Below, piece by piece: positions 10,016 to 52,314 of a stretch of DNA of 64,000 nt. The position numbers and the translations under genes were made by a program. The number at the start of each line of letters is the position of its first letter. Within the stretch, counting starts at the first letter, position 1. This stretch comes from Fusobacterium mortiferum (GTDB lineage Bacteria; Fusobacteriota; Fusobacteriia; Fusobacteriales; Fusobacteriaceae). The notes beneath the pieces were generated by a model. The model was not told where the DNA came from. It searched no databases and was given only the letters and a program-made list of their open reading frames with translations. Where the stretch lies: NCBI RefSeq assembly GCF_016900045.1, contig NZ_JACSNP010000003.1, forward strand, positions 1-64,000. Reading direction: 5' to 3'.

Positions 10016-11269
10016 TTATCTATATAATACTCCGATATCTTTTCTGAAATATTTCTTTTCAAAATTTACTTGTTCAGCATCATAATAAGCTTTAGCTCTA
10101 GCTTCTTCGAGAGTATCTCCTAGTGCTACCACATTGATTACCCTTCCTCCATTTGTAAGAAGTTTTCCGTTTTCAATTTTAGCTCCCGCTACAAACACCA
10201 TATTTTCTACCTTATCCATTCCAGTTATCTCATAGCCTTTATTGTATTTTTCAGGGTATCCCCCAGATGCAAGCACCACACAACAAGCTGATTTATTACT
10301 CCACTTTACCTCAATAGTAGAAAGTTTCTTATCTATTCCATTCTCTAATAAAGTTATGAAATCTGATTCTAACAGTGGTAAGACAACTTGTGTTTCTGGA
10401 TCTCCCAATCTCATATTGTATTCAAGTAGATAAACTCCCTTTGAAGTTATCATAAGTCCAAAGAAGATAAATCCAGCAAAATCCATTCCTTCAGCTTTTA
10501 TTCCTTCAAGAGTAGGATTCATTATCTCAGTTATAAATTTATCATAAACCTCTTTGGTTACATAAGGATTTGGAGCAATTGTTCCCATTCCACCAGTGTT
10601 AAGTCCTGTTTCCTTTTCCCCTATCTTCTTATGGTCCTTAGCTGAAATAAAAGGAAGTATAGTATTAGAATCTGTTACTGATAAGATAGAAGCTTCCACT
10701 CCATCTAAGAACTCTTCAACTACTATTTGCTCTCCAGCACTATTAAAAACTTTATCAATCATTATCTCATCTACAGCTTTTAATGCCTCTTCAAGATTTT
10801 GACAAATAAGAACTCCCTTTCCAGCAGCAAGTCCACTAGCTTTTACTACCAATGGAAAATCACAATTTTTTATATACTCTTTAGCTTTATCAGCTTCATT
10901 GAACACTTCATAAGTTGCTGTTTTTACTCCATATTTTTTCATAAAATCTTTGGCAAAAGCTTTTGATCCTTCAAGTAATGCAGCTTTTCTATCTGGTCCA
11001 AAAATTCTTAACCCTTCAGCTTGAAATTTATCAACTATACCATCTACTAAAAGCTCTTCACTTCCAACAATAGTTAAATCTATATTTTTTTCTTTAGCAA
11101 AATTAAGAATTTCATCTACACCATTTAGATTTACATTCTCTCCCTTTTCAAGTAGTTCTGTTCCTCCATTTCCAGGAGCACAATAAACTTTTTCTACCTT
11201 CTCATTTTGACTTACTTTCCAACAGATAGTATGCTCTCTTCCACCGCTTCCAACTACTAATATTTTCAT
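10016..11269 (-). CDS. purD: phosphoribosylamine-glycine ligase
   Basis: GAR synthetase, 417 residues, the usual PurD length. It joins glycine to 5-phosphoribosylamine with ATP, the second step of purine synthesis. The N-terminal MKILVVGSGGREHTI, the ATP-grasp segment VKASGLAAGKGV, the GGMGTIAP motif and the metal-binding RLGDPETQ are all present. It is the last gene of the operon, 95 bases after purH and followed by the operon terminator. Confidence 0.97.
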   Translation of the reverse strand: MKILVVGSGGREHTICWKVSQNEKVEKVYCAPGNGGTELLEKGENVNLNGVDEILNFAKEKNIDLTIVGSEELLVDGIVDKFQAEGLRIFGPDRKAALLEGSKAFAKDFMKKYGVKTATYEVFNEADKAKEYIKNCDFPLVVKASGLAAGKGVLICQNLEEALKAVDEIMIDKVFNSAGEQIVVEEFLDGVEASILSVTDSNTILPFISAKDHKKIGEKETGLNTGGMGTIAPNPYVTKEVYDKFITEIMNPTLEGIKAEGMDFAGFIFFGLMITSKGVYLLEYNMRLGDPETQVVLPLLESDFITLLENGIDKKLSTIEVKWSNKSACCVVLASGGYPEKYNKGYEITGMDKVENMVFVAGAKIENGKLLTNGGRVINVVALGDTLEEARAKAYYDAEQVNFEKKYFRKDIGVLYR

Positions 11270-22768: not shown

Positions 22769-22838
22769 ACTCTTCCTCCCTAACAATATCATACATACCA
22801 AAGAGGAAAATAATAGTCATACAACTATTATCTTTAAA

Positions 22839-22903
22839 CTCATAGCGGTTTTTTACAGTGGTAAACCCTAGAAACTCCTCACCATATTTGAGGTATATAT
22901 GAG
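22839..22903 (-). ncRNA. purine-riboswitch-like aptamer (guanine-type variant) upstream of fhs-pur
   Basis: P1 is CTCATA/TATGAG. P2 is CCTCA/TGAGG with loop AATATGG, close to the canonical L2. J2/3 reads GTTTCTAG, matching the purine riboswitch core except that the last base is G rather than C. P3 is GGTTT/AAACC with a loop containing CC for the L2-L3 contact, longer than usual. J3/1 reads GCT, keeping the pyrimidine (C) that specifies guanine-type ligands but with G for the usual A before it. Its location at the start of the purine operon supports the call; the deviations may alter the ligand. Confidence 0.8.
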
Positions 22904-22925
22904 ATATTTTTTCTTTCATATGTTA

Positions 22926-46333: not shown

Positions 46334-47902
46334 TTAATTTCCACCTTGCTTGTATAACATTTCTTTCATATTATAAACTTTATTTTCTGGTAAAAGAAGT
46401 GTCAACACATCTCCACTTTCTATCTCAGTATTTCCTTTAGGAATTATCTCATGATCATTCCTTGTAATAGCAACTACCAAAACATCTTCAGCCCATTTTA
46501 TTTCTGATATTTTTTTCCCATCTAATTCAGATTCAGCCATTATAGGTATAGAGATTACTGTCTTTTTCTCATTTTTCTCCTCGATCATTGGAGTATCTTT
46601 TGGCATACGTTTAAACAGTATCTCATATATAGGTTCTAAACCTAAAAGATCAGTTACATAGTAAGCTATAACCGATACAGTAACTAATGCTAATAAATGA
46701 TCAAAATTCCCAGTCATCTCTAAAATAAGTACTGCTCCAGTTATTGGAGCTCTTACAACAGCTACAAAGTAACCAGCCATTCCTAAAACCATAAAATGTG
46801 GAACATATTCTATTCCTATTCCAAGATATTTCATCAAAGTTAATCCATATATTTTTCCAATAATAGCTCCCAATACCAACATTGGTAAAAATATTCCACC
46901 TGCAAATCCTGTTGCATAGCTTAATGCTGTAAAAAAAAGTTTTATTAAAAATATTATTATTAATAACTTTATTGTCCTAGTTCCACCAGCCATTCCCTCT
47001 ACTAGTTCATGACCTCCTCCAGTAACTTCTGGAAGTAAATAGCATAATAGTAAAGAAGTTGACATTACAAAGCTAATCTTTAGCCATCTTGAAAGCTTTA
47101 ACTCCTTGAAATGATCTTGTACTTTTATTAATGTAGTTGTAAATAATTTTCCAAAAAAAGCTATAATAATCCCTAGGATAATATATAGTGCAAACTGATA
47201 ATATGGATTAATATTTTTAGGATAACTAGCTATTAAATTAAATGATGGATTCATTCCAAATATTCTTCTTCCAACAAAATCAGAAGCTATACTAGCTAAA
47301 AATGTACATATCAATAGTTTAGCAGAAATATACTTATGTAATTCCTCTAAAGCAAAAATTACTCCTGAAAGAGGAGCTCCGAAAGCACCAGCTAATCCTG
47401 CACTTGAACCACTTGTAATTAAATATTTTTTCTCTATACTATCTCTTTTAAATATTTTAGTAATTCCAAAACCAATATATGAACCTAATTGTACTGATGG
47501 CCCCTCTCTTCCCAATGAAAGACCAGCTCCAATTCCCATAAGTCCAGTTATAAATTTAGCTATAAGCTCTTGGAACCACTTTGTATAATCTAACTTTCTT
47601 AATAATATTCCCTTTACTTGTGGTATACCACTTCCGGAAATCTTAGGATATTTTTTAGATATATAATCTACTAAAAGTCCTATTAAAATAAAAGATAACC
47701 AAATAATAAATATAGTGTGTGTTCCTTCTATCAAAGAGTTCTTTATCATTAGCTCTCTAAAATGATTAATATAATTTAAAGCTAATCTATAGAGTGATAC
47801 TGTAACCCCTGTCAAAGTTCCCACAACTATACATAACAGATATAATTTTCCACTTCCTTTTTGTAAAAGTTTCAAATTATCTGCCACTGTTTCTGTTTTC
47901 AT
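46334..47902 (-). CDS. ClC family chloride transporter with TrkA-C domain
   Basis: A 522-residue protein. The ClC core shows GSGIPQVKG (selectivity Ser), GREGPSVQLG with the gating Glu, GAFGAPLSGVIFALEE with a second Glu in the position of the proton-path residue, and GGIFLPMLVLGA. Both Glu residues indicate a Cl-/H+ antiporter rather than a channel. A C-terminal RCK/TrkA-C-like domain (residues 445-520) probably binds a regulatory ligand. Single-gene unit; GGAGGGG precedes the ATG. Confidence 0.9.
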   Translation of the reverse strand: MKTETVADNLKLLQKGSGKLYLLCIVVGTLTGVTVSLYRLALNYINHFRELMIKNSLIEGTHTIFIIWLSFILIGLLVDYISKKYPKISGSGIPQVKGILLRKLDYTKWFQELIAKFITGLMGIGAGLSLGREGPSVQLGSYIGFGITKIFKRDSIEKKYLITSGSSAGLAGAFGAPLSGVIFALEELHKYISAKLLICTFLASIASDFVGRRIFGMNPSFNLIASYPKNINPYYQFALYIILGIIIAFFGKLFTTTLIKVQDHFKELKLSRWLKISFVMSTSLLLCYLLPEVTGGGHELVEGMAGGTRTIKLLIIIFLIKLFFTALSYATGFAGGIFLPMLVLGAIIGKIYGLTLMKYLGIGIEYVPHFMVLGMAGYFVAVVRAPITGAVLILEMTGNFDHLLALVTVSVIAYYVTDLLGLEPIYEILFKRMPKDTPMIEEKNEKKTVISIPIMAESELDGKKISEIKWAEDVLVVAITRNDHEIIPKGNTEIESGDVLTLLLPENKVYNMKEMLYKQGGN

Positions 47903-48149: not shown

Positions 48150-48194
48150 AATTAAAAAATGAGGTATTTTGAATTAAACTCACAATACCTCATC
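48150..48194 (-). terminator. terminator of the spmA-spmB-dacB-ldcA operon
   Basis: ATGAGGTATT and AATACCTCAT pair over ten bases and are followed by TTTTTTAATT on the minus strand, just behind the ldcA stop. Confidence 0.85.
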
Positions 48195-48200
48195 TCTACT

Positions 48201-49124
48201 TTATTCACTAACTACTCTCTCCAATACTTTTAGCTCTTTATTATAAGTATCTATTTCACATATAGCCCCTAATGGAAGAGTCAACATTGGTTCTGAATGC
48301 CCACTTTCAAAATTATATATTACAGGCTTTTTTAACTCCTTAAAATAATTCTGAAAAACCTCTAAAAGTGTCATATCTTTTTCTGAATCTTGAGTACAGT
48401 TTTTAAAATCTCCTAGAACTAAACCCTCTATTTTTTCAAAAACTCCATGCTTTTTTAATTGATTTAGAAATCTATCTATTTTATAAGTTTTTTCTCCAAT
48501 ATCCTCTAAAAATAGTATCTTTCCATTATAATCTAAATCATATTCAGTTCCAAGTGTTGCTATAAGAGTAGCTAAATTTCCACCTACAAGCTTTCCCTTT
48601 GCTCTTCCTTCATTTAAAACTTCCAACTCTTTTGTAATATTTTTTATACTTTGTTCATCTTTTGAGTTAGAAAGTATCTCTATGAAATTTTCATATGTAT
48701 CTCTGTTATAATTACCAGTAAAATTACTCACTGCCATTGGTCCATGAAATGTTATTAAATTAGCTTTTTCATTTAATGCTATATGTAGTGTTGTTATATC
48801 ACTGTAACCTACAAATATCTTTGGATTTCTCTTTATAACTTCAAAATCTAAAAGCTCTATTAATCTATTACATCCATACCCACCACGCATACAAATTATA
48901 GCATCAATACTTTTATCAGCAAAAAAACTATTTATCTCTTCTGCTCTTTCTTCGTCTGTTCCAGCATATGAATACCACTGTTTTTTAGTACACTCTCCCA
49001 AAATTACCTGATATCCCATGTCTTCTATGTTTTTCTTTGCCTCTAAAACTTTCTCATAAGTTGTACAACTAGCTGGTGCTATAATTCCTATTGTATCACC
49101 TTTTTTTAGTTTTTTTCCTAACAT
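48201..49124 (-). CDS. ldcA: LD-carboxypeptidase (S66 family)
   Basis: A 307-residue S66 peptidase that removes the terminal D-Ala from tetrapeptide wall stems, cutting after the L-Lys/DAP-type residue. The nucleophile lies in VGYSDITTLH near residue 105, the Glu in FLEDIGEKTYKIDR near 205 and the His in ESGHSEPMLTLPLG near 275, forming the Ser-Glu-His triad. It has no signal peptide and is thus cytoplasmic, a peptidoglycan-recycling position. Last gene of the lysine-riboswitch operon, 9 bases after the PBP4-like gene. MccF-type immunity is the other known role of the family. Confidence 0.9.
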   Translation of the reverse strand: MLGKKLKKGDTIGIIAPASCTTYEKVLEAKKNIEDMGYQVILGECTKKQWYSYAGTDEERAEEINSFFADKSIDAIICMRGGYGCNRLIELLDFEVIKRNPKIFVGYSDITTLHIALNEKANLITFHGPMAVSNFTGNYNRDTYENFIEILSNSKDEQSIKNITKELEVLNEGRAKGKLVGGNLATLIATLGTEYDLDYNGKILFLEDIGEKTYKIDRFLNQLKKHGVFEKIEGLVLGDFKNCTQDSEKDMTLLEVFQNYFKELKKPVIYNFESGHSEPMLTLPLGAICEIDTYNKELKVLERVVSE

Positions 49125-49133
49125 TTTATACCT

Positions 49134-50801
49134 CTAAAATAAATCATTAATTAACGTTTCCATATTATCTTTTAATTTATTTCTACTTCCATTCCAATGA
49201 TTAACAATTATTGTAAATGCAAGCTCACGTCCATCTTTCTCTACATATCCAGTATAAGACTGAATTCCACTCATACTTCCACTTTTTACTCTTACATCTC
49301 CAGAGAATACACTTGGTTCTAAGAAATCTGAAACAGTTCCCTCATAACCCCCTCTTGGTAAAAGCTTATCAAACCCAGAATAGTTTTTATTCATATATAC
49401 TAATATATTTGTTAAAATATCTGCTGATACATAATCTCCACGAGAAAGTCCACTTCCATCATTCATCACGAGGGCTTTTGTATCAACTCCTTTTGCTTTC
49501 CAAAACTCTTCAATATCTACATCTTTTAGTTTTATAAGTTGATATAGATGCTCTGTATAGTGATTATCACTTCTTTTTAGAAGTACTCTTACCATCTCTT
49601 CTATTGTAGCTGATTTTGTAATAGCTAAAGTATTTGGGTTTTTAGGTCTTTTATTTGTATTTCTACTTGTTTTTACCTCTCCATTTACAGCAATTCCAAC
49701 AGTTTTTAAACTATTTTTAAAGTATTGCCCTAAAAATAAACCTGGATTTGGAATATCACTTTTTGTAACTATTTTCTCTTGATTTGCTGGTACTTCTCCG
49801 TTTAAGATTCTCTTATTTTCAAAAGCTAATCCTCTTACTGAAAAACTCTTTCTGCCCTTTTCAGATACCTTTAATCTATTTTCAAATTTTAATCCTTCTA
49901 TTTCTGGCTTAGTTCCAACAATTTTTACATTTTTAACATCTGATTTTAAATATAAAGTATAGAGATTATCAAATATACTAATTCCATATGTTCCCTGTCC
50001 ATAGCTAGTTCCAAAATCTTCCCATAGCCATTTCTCCTCTACTCCTACATAACCAAATAGATTATCTATTACAATTATATCTCCATCTATTTTTTTAATC
50101 TGAGCAGCTTCTATTTTACTTATCCAATCTTCCATGAATGCACTTTGTTTAACCTTTATTCCATCAGATCCTAATGTTGGATCTCCACCACCTACTATAT
50201 ATACATCACCTTTTAATATACCCTCATTATCTATTTTTCCATCATATAAAAGTTTAGTTTCCAATCTAGTATTAGCTCCTAAAACTTCTAAAGCTGTAGC
50301 TGATGTTATAACTTTAAAAACTGAAGCCGGATTCATTGCTGCCTCTTTATGATAACTTCCTATGGTTTCTCCAGTTTTTAAATCTACAATACTGATACCT
50401 ATATTACTATATTTGAGTGTTTCTAAATTTACAAATTTATCTATAGCTTTTTGAGTTTTTTCCTTAACTATATTTTTTTTACTTTTAGAAATCTGTTTTT
50501 CATTTTTTTTCTCTTTAATATCGTTAAGTATAGTCTCTTTTTTAGTTGAATCTACTTCATCTATACTTTTAATACTATTTTCTAAACTCTCTTTTTTGAT
50601 ATCTATTCTAGCTTCCTTTGTTTCTTGAAGACTCTCGTTAGTGTTTTGAAGATTTTTTAAAATATCACTTGGTGAATCTATTTGGGTTTGCTCTGAAACT
50701 TCAAGATTTTGAGCAAGATTCTGATTTTCATTTTCCACTTTTGTATTAGTACATCCAGTTAATAAAATTATAGCTACTAATAATAATTTAATTTTTTTCA
50801 T
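49134..50801 (-). CDS. dacB: PBP4-type D-Ala-D-Ala carboxypeptidase/endopeptidase lipoprotein
   Basis: A 555-residue S13 peptidase. The signal segment ends ILLTGC (lipid Cys near residue 17), then a 100-residue Lys/Glu/Asn-rich linker tethers the enzyme. The catalytic SxxK is in NPASVFKV near residue 165, SxN in RSDNHYTEH near 410, KSG in RVKSGSMSG near 505. It trims or cleaves cross-linked wall peptides in the periplasm. It lies between spmB (21-base gap) and ldcA, echoing the dacB-spmA-spmB order of Bacillus, although that DacB is of the unrelated S11 type. Confidence 0.9.
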   Translation of the reverse strand: MKKIKLLLVAIILLTGCTNTKVENENQNLAQNLEVSEQTQIDSPSDILKNLQNTNESLQETKEARIDIKKESLENSIKSIDEVDSTKKETILNDIKEKKNEKQISKSKKNIVKEKTQKAIDKFVNLETLKYSNIGISIVDLKTGETIGSYHKEAAMNPASVFKVITSATALEVLGANTRLETKLLYDGKIDNEGILKGDVYIVGGGDPTLGSDGIKVKQSAFMEDWISKIEAAQIKKIDGDIIVIDNLFGYVGVEEKWLWEDFGTSYGQGTYGISIFDNLYTLYLKSDVKNVKIVGTKPEIEGLKFENRLKVSEKGRKSFSVRGLAFENKRILNGEVPANQEKIVTKSDIPNPGLFLGQYFKNSLKTVGIAVNGEVKTSRNTNKRPKNPNTLAITKSATIEEMVRVLLKRSDNHYTEHLYQLIKLKDVDIEEFWKAKGVDTKALVMNDGSGLSRGDYVSADILTNILVYMNKNYSGFDKLLPRGGYEGTVSDFLEPSVFSGDVRVKSGSMSGIQSYTGYVEKDGRELAFTIIVNHWNGSRNKLKDNMETLINDLF

Positions 50802-50822
50802 TTTCTACTCCAAATTATATTT

Positions 50823-51362
50823 TTATGCAAACATAATTCTACAAATCCATACTGCAGTTAGTAATCCAGCTAGGTCGGCTAGTAATCCAACTGCAACAGC
50901 ATGCCTCGTTTTTCTTATGCTTACTGCTCCAAAATATACAGCAAGAACATAGAAAGTAGTTTCTGTAGATCCCATCATTGTTGAAGCTATTCTTCCTATT
51001 AAAGAGTCTGGTCCATATGTTAACATTAAATCATTCATTACCCCAGTTGCTCCACCACCTGATAATGGTCTTAATATTGCCATTGGTAATACCTCTCCAG
51101 GCATTCCTATCAATCCAAATACAGGATCTAATATCTTCATCATTATATCGATACATCCAGAAGCTCTAAATATCCCTATTGCAACTAACATTGCTACTAA
51201 AAATGGTATAATTCTTATTGATGTATTAAATCCTTCCTTTGCTCCTTCACAAAATACCTCATATACTTTTATTTTTTTTACAAAATAAGCATATCCTACT
51301 ATTATTAAAATTATTAATGGTATTGCATAAAGTGAGATACTCTCCATTATTCTTACAAACAT
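50823..51362 (-). CDS. spmB: SpmB-like membrane protein (nucleoside-recognition/gate domain)
   Basis: A 179-residue polytopic protein with five or six helices. The gate-domain signature is seen in GFNTSIRIIPFLVAMLVAIG, and MAILRPLSGGGATGVMNDL is a typical SpmB block. In Bacillus SpmA and SpmB are needed for normal spore cortex and dehydration; their biochemical role is unknown but gate-domain proteins are transporters. Here it follows spmA by 45 bases in an operon controlled by a lysine riboswitch, which suggests lysine or dibasic amino-acid transport. Confidence 0.9.
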   Translation of the reverse strand: MFVRIMESISLYAIPLIILIIVGYAYFVKKIKVYEVFCEGAKEGFNTSIRIIPFLVAMLVAIGIFRASGCIDIMMKILDPVFGLIGMPGEVLPMAILRPLSGGGATGVMNDLMLTYGPDSLIGRIASTMMGSTETTFYVLAVYFGAVSIRKTRHAVAVGLLADLAGLLTAVWICRIMFA

Positions 51363-51407
51363 ATTCTTCCTCCTAAATTTTACTAAATATTCAAAATTAT
51401 TTCAATA

Positions 51408-52004
51408 TTATATTTTTTCTCTTCTATACTTTGGTAATTTTTCTAAAAATTTGCACGAAATTATAGCTACTGCTGTAGACGCTATTGTTGCTACTATAGT
51501 AGGAGCTATTATCTCTGTTGCATTAGCTGAACCTGCAGCTACTCTATAAGCTATTGTACTTGATGATATAAGAGTTATTGATGAAGTATTTATAGCTAAA
51601 AACATTACCATTGAATTTGAAGCTTCATCTTTATTGTCATTTAATAATTGTAACTCTTGCATAGCCTTTATTCCTAAAGGAGTTGCTGCATTTCCTAATC
51701 CAAAAAAGTTTGCTGCCATATTGGCTACCATACTTCCCATTGCTGGATGATCAGCAGGTACTTCTGGAAATAATCTTACTAAGATTGGTTTCATTAAATT
51801 TCCAATAGCCTTTACCATTCCAGCTTCCTCTGCTATTTTCATTAACCCAAGCCAAAGTGCCATAACACCTATCATCTCTATAGATAAAGTTACTGCTGTT
51901 CCTGCTGATTTAATTGCTGAGTCTGTAACAGCTTGTACATTCCCTGTAAATATTCCTACTAAAATTCCTATAACTATAAGTCCACACCAAATTGCATTAA
52001 TCAT
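51408..52004 (-). CDS. spmA: SpmA-like membrane protein (nucleoside-recognition/gate domain)
   Basis: A 198-residue membrane protein from the ATG at 52004 (AGGAGG upstream); an in-frame TTG at 52022 coincides with the ribosome site. Visible: MINAIWCGLIVIGI at the N-terminus and the highly conserved GSMVANMAANFFGLGNAATPLGIKAM type block near residue 85-110 (given here only in part: ANFFGLGNAATPLGIKAM). SpmA and SpmB probably form a complex. First structural gene behind the lysine riboswitch, with the riboswitch terminator ending about 30 bases before its start. Confidence 0.92.
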   Translation of the reverse strand: MINAIWCGLIVIGILVGIFTGNVQAVTDSAIKSAGTAVTLSIEMIGVMALWLGLMKIAEEAGMVKAIGNLMKPILVRLFPEVPADHPAMGSMVANMAANFFGLGNAATPLGIKAMQELQLLNDNKDEASNSMVMFLAINTSSITLISSSTIAYRVAAGSANATEIIAPTIVATIASTAVAIISCKFLEKLPKYRREKI

Positions 52005-52034
52005 TAATATATACCTCCTCAAATTTTTAGCAAA

Positions 52035-52066
52035 ATAAAAAAATCACAGCTGACTAAACTGTGATA
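52035..52066 (-). terminator. riboswitch-controlled terminator before spmA
   Basis: ATCACAG and CTGTGAT form a 7-bp stem followed by a run of seven T then ATTTT on the minus strand. It sits between the lysine aptamer and the spmA ribosome site, the usual expression platform for an OFF switch. Confidence 0.85.
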
Positions 52067-52103
52067 AATTACAAAAAAGATAAAATAATCCCTCTCTTAT
52101 TCT

Positions 52104-52276
52104 CACAGATAGCTCTCCACTGAAAAAATTCAATGACAACAATGTAGATATTATCCACATTGCCAACAAAAGAGTTTAGCCCTCTCTTCCATTTCGGCAA
52201 ATTCCCCTTTCAAAATATCATAACGCCTGCCAAGCTATATATTTTTACTCCTGTCATTTGCTCCTCTACCTTGCTT
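52104..52276 (-). ncRNA. lysine riboswitch (L box)
   Basis: On the minus strand the conserved elements appear in order: P1 strand AAGGTAG with GAGGAGC, the AGGAGTA turn, GGC followed by GAAAGGGGAATTTGCCGAA (the most diagnostic block), TTGGCAATG, then CAGTGGAGAGCTATCT, which closes P1. The length of about 170 bases matches the five-helix lysine aptamer. A promoter lies just upstream and an intrinsic terminator just downstream, so high lysine should stop transcription of spmA-spmB-dacB-ldcA. Confidence 0.93.
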
Positions 52277-52284
52277 TTATTATT

Positions 52285-52314
52285 AGTATACATTAGTTTA
52301 TCTCTATTGTACAA
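52285..52314 (-). promoter_or_regulatory. promoter of the lysine-riboswitch operon
   Basis: TTGTAC (52309-52314) and TATACT (52285-52290) are spaced 18 bp on the minus strand; transcription would start about 6-8 bases later, right before the aptamer. Confidence 0.7.

What the first reader, a model, noticed from the sequence alone, without database searches (positions are those of the whole stretch)
48201..52314. Lysine riboswitch controls spmA-spmB plus two peptidoglycan carboxypeptidases in a non-sporulating lineage
Sequence shows: minus-strand promoter, complete L-box core, intrinsic terminator, then spmA, spmB, an S13 D,D-carboxypeptidase lipoprotein and an S66 L,D-carboxypeptidase with short gaps and one terminator at the end. 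Family knowledge: SpmA/SpmB are gate-domain membrane proteins known only from spore cortex defects; S13 and S66 enzymes successively remove D-Ala residues from wall peptides, leaving the dibasic residue at the end. Inference: the operon is a low-lysine response that harvests or remodels wall peptides and moves lysine or a related diamino acid, which gives SpmAB a transport role independent of sporulation.
Basis: partly seen in the sequence, partly recalled or inferred. Interest (0 to 1): 0.87.

Follow-up and report, generated by a model that had tools for sequence, protein, structure and literature searches.

The report
Lysine-controlled operon for an SpmAB transporter
In a bacterium related to Cetobacterium that does not seem to make spores, a lysine-sensing RNA switch controls genes best known from a spore defect; in many other bacteria the same genes sit beside enzymes that trim cell-wall peptides, which points to a transport job linked to cell-wall building blocks.

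Summary
A full-length lysine riboswitch (RF00168, 117 bits, threshold 30) lies at 52102-52276, minus strand. Behind it are an attenuator whose terminator and antiterminator exclude each other, spmA, spmB, an S13 lipoprotein, an S66 peptidase and a terminator.

The genome's other three lysine riboswitches precede lysC-asd-dapA-dapB-dapD, lysA-dapF and an amino-acid ABC transporter, so spmAB belongs to a lysine/DAP regulon. A riboswitch precedes spmA in 11 of 12 genomes of this Fusobacteriaceae genus (degenerate in two) and in none of the other loci sampled. In four relatives spmAB-S66 shares a same-strand run with lysA.

"Known only from spores" is wrong: SpmAB homologues occur in many phyla not known for spores, repeatedly beside S66, sometimes S13, and DacB in Bacillus. 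A natural SpmA-SpmB fusion is predicted to resemble elevator-type transporters.

Best reading: a lysine-repressed transport and trimming module for wall-derived diamino-acid peptides. The substrate is unproven, and no Mpl, NlpC/P60 or M14 peptidase was found in the genome. The kind is known; the gene target and the wide SpmAB-S66 linkage were not seen in the papers searched.

The parts
52285..52313 (-). candidate promoter (TGTACA - 17 - TATACT)
   Evidence: weak by score (9 of 12) but the TTGTACA...GTATACT arrangement recurs in the five leaders printed
52102..52276 (-). lysine riboswitch aptamer (RF00168)
   Evidence: cmscan 117 bits, gathering 30, complete model
52103..52108 (-). antiterminator strand CUGUGA, overlapping the 3' strand of P1 by two bases
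   Evidence: can pair with UCACAG at 52064-52059; the same pairing is possible in 8 of 10 leaders computed
52036..52065 (-). intrinsic terminator of the attenuator (stem 52065-52043 plus T run)
51408..52004 (-). spmA, 198 aa, Gate-domain membrane protein
   Evidence: PF07670, E 3.8e-14
50823..51362 (-). spmB, 179 aa, Gate-domain membrane protein
   Evidence: PF07670, E 1.3e-13
49134..50801 (-). S13 D,D-carboxypeptidase (PBP4-like) with a lipoprotein-type N-terminus; SVFK, SDN and KSG motifs present
   Evidence: PF02113 E 2.6e-66; TIGR00666 above cut-off; motifs (motif roles recalled)
48201..49124 (-). S66 peptidase, no hydrophobic stretch found; the only S66 match in the genome
   Evidence: PF02016 + PF17676; its GYSD, FLED and GH sites align with MccF structures (that these hold the catalytic S, E, H is recalled)
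48154..48194 (-). operon-end terminator
   Evidence: hairpin -16.7 kcal/mol, z -5.4, followed by T run

Best explanation
This is a lysine-repressed operon in the lysine/DAP regulon of a Fusobacteriaceae genus. With lysine bound, P1 of the aptamer forms and the terminator at 52065-52043 folds, so the genes stay off. Without lysine, CUGUGA at the end of P1 pairs with the 5' arm of the terminator and transcription runs on. SpmA and SpmB, homologous half-units that are fused into one protein in several phyla, most likely form one elevator-type secondary transporter. Their steadiest partner here is a cytoplasmic S66 peptidase, and in this lineage also a periplasmic S13 D,D-carboxypeptidase lipoprotein. 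The most likely job is to trim D-Ala from wall peptides outside (S13), bring the wall-derived diamino-acid peptide (or the diamino acid itself) in through SpmAB, and trim the terminal D-Ala inside (S66), when lysine and hence DAP supply is low. Shown by computation: riboswitch, switch geometry, operon layout, regulon, wide SpmAB-carboxypeptidase linkage. Inferred: lysine response, transport, its direction and its substrate.
For: Aptamer 117 bits. In 8 of 10 leaders computed, CUGUGA/CUGUGG of the P1 3' tail can pair with UCACAG of the conserved terminator, the two forced states differing by at most 2.4 kcal/mol. Own genome: four lysine riboswitches; the other three precede lysA-dapF, aspartate kinase-asd-dapA-dapB-DapD_Ac (each over an NCBIfam cut-off) and an amino-acid ABC transporter. 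Riboswitch before spmA in 11 of 12 genomes of the genus. In G025-G028 a same-strand run reads riboswitch-spmA-spmB-S66-ThrE-ThrE_2-lysA-M20, with glutamate racemase, a wall-precursor enzyme, as the next gene upstream of the riboswitch in 4 of 4. Outside Fusobacteria: S66 is 14 of 226 same-strand frames within two of spmAB and 0 of 522 other frames in the same loci; S13 5 and 0; DacB-like S11 28 and 0. S66 confirmed by Pfam in 11 of those 14 loci. lysA directly before spmA in Anaerophilus and three genes before it in Anaerovirgula. NlpC/P60 directly before S66-spmA-spmB in one Neomarinimicrobiota locus (L121). Fusion model pLDDT 88, pTM 0.84; best structural matches CNT transporters, Z 13.6 over 271 residues, then ArsB, NaDC/INDY and TRAP. 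Precedent: lysine riboswitch before oligoendopeptidase F plus a membrane protein in Mycoplasma (PMC5584792, section 12).
Against: No protein over the Mpl cut-off, no NlpC/P60 and no M14 peptidase in the genome, so no known enzyme to use an imported tripeptide. The riboswitch link is confined to one genus: among 100 spmAB loci the model R1 finds it only in 10, all of that genus and all part of its training set. G029 of the genus has none. The second spmAB copy of G025-G028 has neither riboswitch nor S66 beside it. 34 of the 76 usable outside loci show none of S11, S13 or S66 within two frames (28 S11 and 14 S66 loci, the five S13 loci being among the latter). Foldseek alone gives no match at E <= 0.001 (best 1.4e-3, TM 0.42), and Z 13-14 can be reached by helical folds without kinship (note). 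The S66 protein is below the LdcA cut-off and nearest MccF. Two leaders (G022, G023) have a degenerate aptamer without antiterminator.
Confidence: 0.5

Rival explanations
1. SpmAB moves D-alanine, not DAP or lysine. D-Ala is the common product of S11, S13 and S66 carboxypeptidases (recalled), so a D-Ala carrier would explain linkage with all three; the lysine riboswitch then only reports wall-precursor shortage.
For: S11, S13 and S66 neighbours in different lineages; alanine racemase directly before spmA in Romboutsia weinsteinii and Clostridium sp. CCUG 7971 (Pfam for the first).
Against: Does not explain lysine control in the genus nor lysA neighbours in G025-G028, Anaerovirgula and Anaerophilus; alr neighbour in only 2 of 76 usable loci.
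Confidence: 0.2
2. SpmAB imports or exports free lysine or DAP, and the two carboxypeptidases merely share regulation as wall-maintenance enzymes under DAP shortage.
For: Most lysine riboswitches of one survey stand before lysine synthesis or transport genes (PMC5584792, passages and section 12); lysA linkage.
Against: The genome already has a riboswitch-controlled amino-acid ABC transporter; outside Fusobacteria S66 linkage is stronger than lysA linkage (14 against 1 within two frames).
Confidence: 0.15
3. The operon remodels the wall rather than salvaging from it: fewer cross-links when DAP is scarce, with SpmAB as a membrane partner or regulator of the carboxypeptidases and no substrate of its own. 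In spores SpmAB with DacB would do likewise.
For: DacB-like S11 beside spmAB in 28 Bacillus-type loci; spmAB loss is reported to raise spore core water (PMC13188902, two passages); no peptide-using enzymes found in the genome.
Against: Transporter-like model and natural fusions; S66 has no hydrophobic signal stretch and so probably acts inside.
Confidence: 0.12

Closest known systems
Lysine riboswitch (L-box), RF00168
   Same: Complete aptamer, P1-linked terminator and antiterminator, OFF-switch layout
   Different: Controls spmAB with carboxypeptidases; the main text of the lysine-riboswitch survey PMC5584792 has 0 occurrences of spm, spore maturation or carboxypeptidase
dacB-spmA-spmB operon of spore-forming Bacillus
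   Same: SpmA and SpmB next to a D,D-carboxypeptidase (28 of 76 usable loci)
   Different: S11 instead of S13/S66, sporulation setting, no lysine riboswitch found in those loci
Muropeptide-use operons with S66 and NlpC/P60 (ykf-type; recalled, not fetched)
   Same: S66 peptidase beside a transporter; in L121 also NlpC/P60 with spmAB
   Different: Here no NlpC/P60 or M14 found in the genome, and SpmAB in place of an ABC peptide importer
SpoVV/YlbJ, Gate-family protein of sporulation (carrier of dipicolinic acid: start of abstract and recall)
   Same: Gate family PF07670, remote similarity to concentrative nucleoside transporters (PMC5629000, start of abstract, two passages)
   Different: One protein, spore-specific; SpmAB is two proteins and found far outside spore-formers

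Membership tests
Lysine riboswitch RF00168 | covariance score above the curated threshold over the full model | tested here: met
   117 bits against 30, positions 1-182
Lysine riboswitch RF00168 | expression platform coupled to P1 | tested here: met
   antiterminator CUGUGA/UCACAG excludes the terminator; window and 7 more of 10 leaders computed; by computation only
Lysine riboswitch RF00168 | binds lysine and lowers expression | not testable with these tools
   needs in-line probing or a reporter
SpmA/SpmB | paired adjacent Gate-domain membrane proteins | tested here: met
   PF07670 in both; homologues beside DacB-like S11 in Bacillus
SpmA/SpmB | role in sporulation | tested here: not met
   no Spo0A_C in the genome, B. 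subtilis control positive. A SpoIVA search gave one partial hit, 21.2 bits (27.2 with neighbours, cut-off 26.6), positions 166-231 of 237 in a 414-aa frame; the control Thermotoga also rings, so I read it as a GTPase-like cross-hit
S66 muramoyltetrapeptide carboxypeptidase (LdcA) | both S66 domains | tested here: met
S66 muramoyltetrapeptide carboxypeptidase (LdcA) | LdcA equivalog score | tested here: not met
   NF008424 184.7 bits, cut-off 378; MccF structures score higher (163 bits) than murein tetrapeptide carboxypeptidases (133 and below)
S13 D,D-carboxypeptidase (PBP4) | PBP4 equivalog score and SxxK, SxN, K(T/S)G motifs | tested here: met
   TIGR00666 178.8 bits, cut-off 107.8; SVFK, SDN, KSG
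Elevator-type transporters (CNT and relatives) | fold of the SpmA-SpmB unit | tested here: inconclusive
   Z 13.6 to CNT, 271 residues, rmsd 4.2; Foldseek none at E <= 0.001; CNT proteins share the Gate family (PMC5629000)

The most novel reading that the evidence does not exclude
SpmAB is, in all bacteria including spore-formers, an elevator-type transporter for carboxypeptidase-trimmed wall peptides or their diamino acid; the spore-core dehydration defect of spmAB mutants is then a wall-peptide transport defect, and the lysine riboswitch of this genus reveals the substrate class.
Probability: 0.25. Interest if true: 0.85.

Novelty: new variant of a known kind. Interest (0 to 1): 0.62.

Why it matters
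SpmA and SpmB are listed among the genes of all spore-forming bacilli and clostridia, with no data on any activity as of 2012 (PMC3533761, passages). A lysine riboswitch, and repeated linkage to S66, S13, DacB, and in single cases LysA, NlpC/P60 and alanine racemase, give a concrete, testable substrate class (wall-derived diamino-acid peptide, DAP, or D-Ala) in organisms where the genes can be studied without sporulation.

Tried and rejected
Considered and rejected: that the aptamer is a chance or partial match (117 bits, complete). That the S13 enzyme is a defining part (not beside spmAB in G025-G028 nor in the five g2 and Cetobacterium stretches fetched). That the riboswitch-spmAB link is general: 20 of 50 genomes searched hold a lysine riboswitch, but the model R1, which re-finds it in 10 of 10 control loci from other lineages, finds it in only 10 of 100 spmAB loci; those 10 are of this genus and were in its training set. 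Rfam itself found none in 12 outside loci. That the sister copy of spmAB is also controlled (L065, L068, L070, L072: no riboswitch).

Led nowhere: no PDB chain resembles SpmA by sequence; a first, automatic antiterminator search chose A/U-rich pairs and was replaced by the named pairing. Paper searches: lysine riboswitch with SpmA (0 papers); lysine riboswitch with Fusobacterium (10 listed, one looked into); muropeptide, SpmA, spore maturation protein, any two (13 listed, none read for this); spore maturation protein with riboswitch (1 listed, not read); spmA with LD-carboxypeptidase (2 listed, not read); lysine riboswitch with carboxypeptidase (1; its passages show no link); SpmA SpmB transporter substrate (11 listed; only PMC3533761 among them had passages read). 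None showed this association. Only open-licence PMC papers were searched; regulon databases were not. PMC11602996 (passages) had nothing on the wall type of this genus.

L094 is the same contig as L077. Neighbour labels are BLAST hits. One search leaves out L094; 3 of the 79 loci (L107, L144, L145) kept no spm frame in my frame picker and were left out, and L075 likewise. In one search, 50 of 79 loci were given. S66 was checked by Pfam in 11 of 14 loci, S13 in 1 of 5, alanine racemase in 1 of 2. One search used stricter filters and a capped list. In one search I took a 334-aa Anaerovirgula protein for a possible DapF; NCBIfam makes it a D-cysteine desulfhydrase-family enzyme. DapF in L071 rests on reading 172 residues at the end of the fetched stretch. 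In G027 the lysA frame is broken in two (L069:9647-10102 and 10099-10950), a mutation or a sequencing error.

Full report
WHAT IS THERE. The minus strand from about 52313 to 48154 carries a compact operon. Rfam places a lysine aptamer at 52276-52102 with 117 bits against a gathering score of 30. After it come a terminator (52065-52043 plus six T), spmA, spmB, an S13 protein and an S66 protein with gaps of 45, 21 and 9 bases, and an end terminator. spmA most likely starts at the ATG at 52004, behind a GAGGAGG site; the frame tool's TTG at 52022 is less likely. The S13 protein starts like a lipoprotein (LLTGC); the S66 protein shows no hydrophobic stretch. The promoter is the weakest part by score and rests on conservation among leaders.

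HOW THE SWITCH WORKS. The 3' strand of P1 is CUAUCU; the bases CUGUGA, which begin with its last two, are complementary to UCACAG, the 5' arm of the terminator. In 8 of 10 leaders folded, this six-pair antiterminator is available (CUGUGA in four, CUGUGG in four), and forced terminator and antiterminator states differ by at most 2.4 kcal/mol, the antiterminator being the lower in two. The G024 leader, read by eye from the same output, has it too. So lysine binding, which would stabilise P1, should favour the terminator: an OFF switch. That lysine binds is inferred from the family. The other two leaders (G022, G023) keep the terminator but lack the antiterminator and part of the aptamer core, with Rfam scores of 60.8 and 78.4.

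THE REGULON. The genome has four lysine riboswitches. The other three precede lysA-dapF and a DctA-like symporter (its family score is under the cut-off); aspartate kinase-asd-dapA-dapB-DapD_Ac-aminotransferase; and an amino-acid ABC transporter whose binding protein matches the lysine/arginine/ornithine group, under the cut-off. The organism therefore has genes for DAP by the acetyl route, under lysine riboswitches; spmAB is the fourth member. Spo0A was not found, with the B. subtilis control positive; a SpoIVA search gave one partial hit that I read as a cross-hit (see Membership tests).

HOW OLD AND HOW WIDE IS THE LINK. In the phylum, 92 of 98 genomes have a lysine riboswitch and 23 of 98 an SpmA homologue at E <= 0.001, in three genera. 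I fetched 20 spmA stretches: 15 from the window's genus g1, 1 from g2, 4 from g3. g3 is Cetobacterium: L094, a record titled Cetobacterium, is the same DNA as the G014 stretch. Cetobacterium is in Fusobacteriaceae, and g1 is given as the same family; the genus itself was not named by any search. A riboswitch precedes spmA in 11 of 12 genomes of g1 (window, ten loci); G029 has none. The g2 and g3 stretches have none; for the six Cetobacterium genomes not fetched, the positions listed (stricter filters) do not lie beside the spmA. S66 follows spmAB in 10 of the 10 g1 genomes where the contig lets it be seen, and in 5 of 5 g2 and g3 stretches; S13 is in the operon in six genomes (G000, G019-G023). 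In G025-G028 a same-strand run reads riboswitch-spmA-spmB-S66-ThrE-ThrE_2-lysA-M20, then a DcuC-type carrier in G025-G027 and a DapF-like frame in G028 (families; the others by similarity). In G027 lysA is split in two frames. The M20 gene lies about 180-190 bases after lysA in G025, G026 and G028 and could have its own promoter. Glutamate racemase is the next gene upstream of the riboswitch in these four, and lies within a few genes of spmAB in 4 of the 5 g2 and g3 stretches (L080 was not given). Those four genomes also hold a second spmAB, without riboswitch and without S66, next to dpp-type ABC genes (the type is recalled).

OUTSIDE FUSOBACTERIA. The search kept 80 loci (one of them, L094, fusobacterial). 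They lie in Bacillus and Clostridia-type spore-formers and also in records titled Marinimicrobia, KSB1, Calditrichaeota, cyanobacterium, Proteobacteria, Verrucomicrobiales, Acidobacteria, Myxococcota and others; that those phyla do not sporulate is general knowledge, not a call. In the 76 usable of 79 loci, S66 is found in 14 of 226 same-strand frames within two of spmAB and in 0 of 522 other frames; S13 in 5 and 0; DacB-like S11 in 28 and 0; alanine racemase in 2 and 0; NlpC/P60 in 4 and 1; M20 in 3 and 1; lysA in 1 and 8 (labels by BLAST). Orders differ: spmA-spmB-S66 in Clostridia, S66-spmA-spmB in a Kangiella record, S13-S66-spmA-spmB in five loci (three titled Marinimicrobia or Neomarinimicrobiota, two unclassified), NlpC/P60-S66-spmA-spmB in L121. 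Shared content in different orders argues for a functional tie rather than inheritance of one block. lysA stands directly before spmA in Anaerophilus and three genes before it in Anaerovirgula. The lysine riboswitch is not found in any of the 80, while the same model re-finds it in 10 of 10 control loci.

WHAT SPMAB IS. SpmA and SpmB both belong to the Gate family and are one protein in five loci. A model of one natural fusion (L134, 414 aa, 53% and 56% identical to the window's SpmA and SpmB) has pLDDT 88 and pTM 0.84. Its best structural partners are concentrative nucleoside transporters (Z 13.6, 271 residues, rmsd 4.2), with ArsB, NaDC/INDY and TRAP transporters below, all membrane carriers. 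Foldseek alone found nothing at E <= 0.001, and the tool warns that such Z can arise among helical folds; with the shared Pfam family I take it as moderate support for an elevator-type carrier. SpoVV, another Gate-family protein, is tied to dipicolinate transport (PMC5629000, start of abstract, passages).

WHAT IT DOES. The repeated partners are enzymes that take D-Ala off wall peptides (recalled for the families), outside (S11, S13) or inside (S66). Together with lysine control and lysA neighbours, the simplest reading is a carrier for a wall-derived peptide ending in the diamino acid, or for that diamino acid. Against full salvage: no Mpl above its cut-off, no NlpC/P60, no M14 peptidase in the genome. 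A D-Ala carrier explains the carboxypeptidases equally well but not lysine. I give the main reading 0.5, of which the riboswitch and regulon are near certain and the substrate is perhaps one in three.

NOVELTY. The riboswitch class and the protein families are known. The searches did not show a lysine riboswitch before spmAB or the spmAB-S66 linkage in print, as far as listings and passages go. The lysine-riboswitch survey PMC5584792 reports for F. nucleatum a site before kal and for other Fusobacteria lysine-synthesis operons and an ABC transporter (passages and section 12), with no mention of spm or carboxypeptidase in its main text. It does report a riboswitch before a peptidase and membrane protein in Mycoplasma, a fair precedent. 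Hence: new variant of a known kind.

Noticed in passing
L073:5921-6090 and L064:6690-6861: Lysine aptamers before spmA in G022 and G023 are degenerate (60.8 and 78.4 bits): the AGAGG near the start is broken and the antiterminator is gone while the terminator stays. Decay or changed ligand.
   Followed up: partly
L066:3102-4325: A ThrE / ThrE_2 exporter pair lies inside the lysine-riboswitch run of G025-G028; an exporter that would be on at low lysine is odd.
   Followed up: no
L065, L068, L070, L072: Second spmAB copy without riboswitch and without S66, next to ABC transporter genes that look dpp-type, in G025-G028.
   Followed up: partly
L066:7077-7868 and L067, L069, L071; L076-L079: Glutamate racemase is the next gene upstream of the spmAB riboswitch in G025-G028 and lies near spmAB in g2 and Cetobacterium stretches.
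   Followed up: partly
L069:9647-10950: lysA of G027 is split into two overlapping frames.
   Followed up: no
window 22823-22922 (-): Purine riboswitch (RF00167, 46.9 bits) before a 554-aa frame and a run of frames that look like purine-synthesis genes (recalled, not searched).
   Followed up: no
L134:6001-7245, L143:59-1363, L129:6001-7374, L162:5980-7260, L158:1909-3807: Natural SpmA-SpmB fusions in records titled KSB1, Verrucomicrobiales, Spartobacteria, Sumerlaeota and Myxococcota.
   Followed up: yes
L106:3281-5617: A D-cysteine desulfhydrase-family PLP enzyme and a symporter 71% identical to the one in the window genome's lysA operon stand between lysA and spmAB in Anaerovirgula.
   Followed up: partly
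window 46334-47902 (-): A ClC-type channel gene with a TrkA_C domain follows S66 in the six genomes that have S13 in the operon; in the window it lies beyond the terminator.
   Followed up: no
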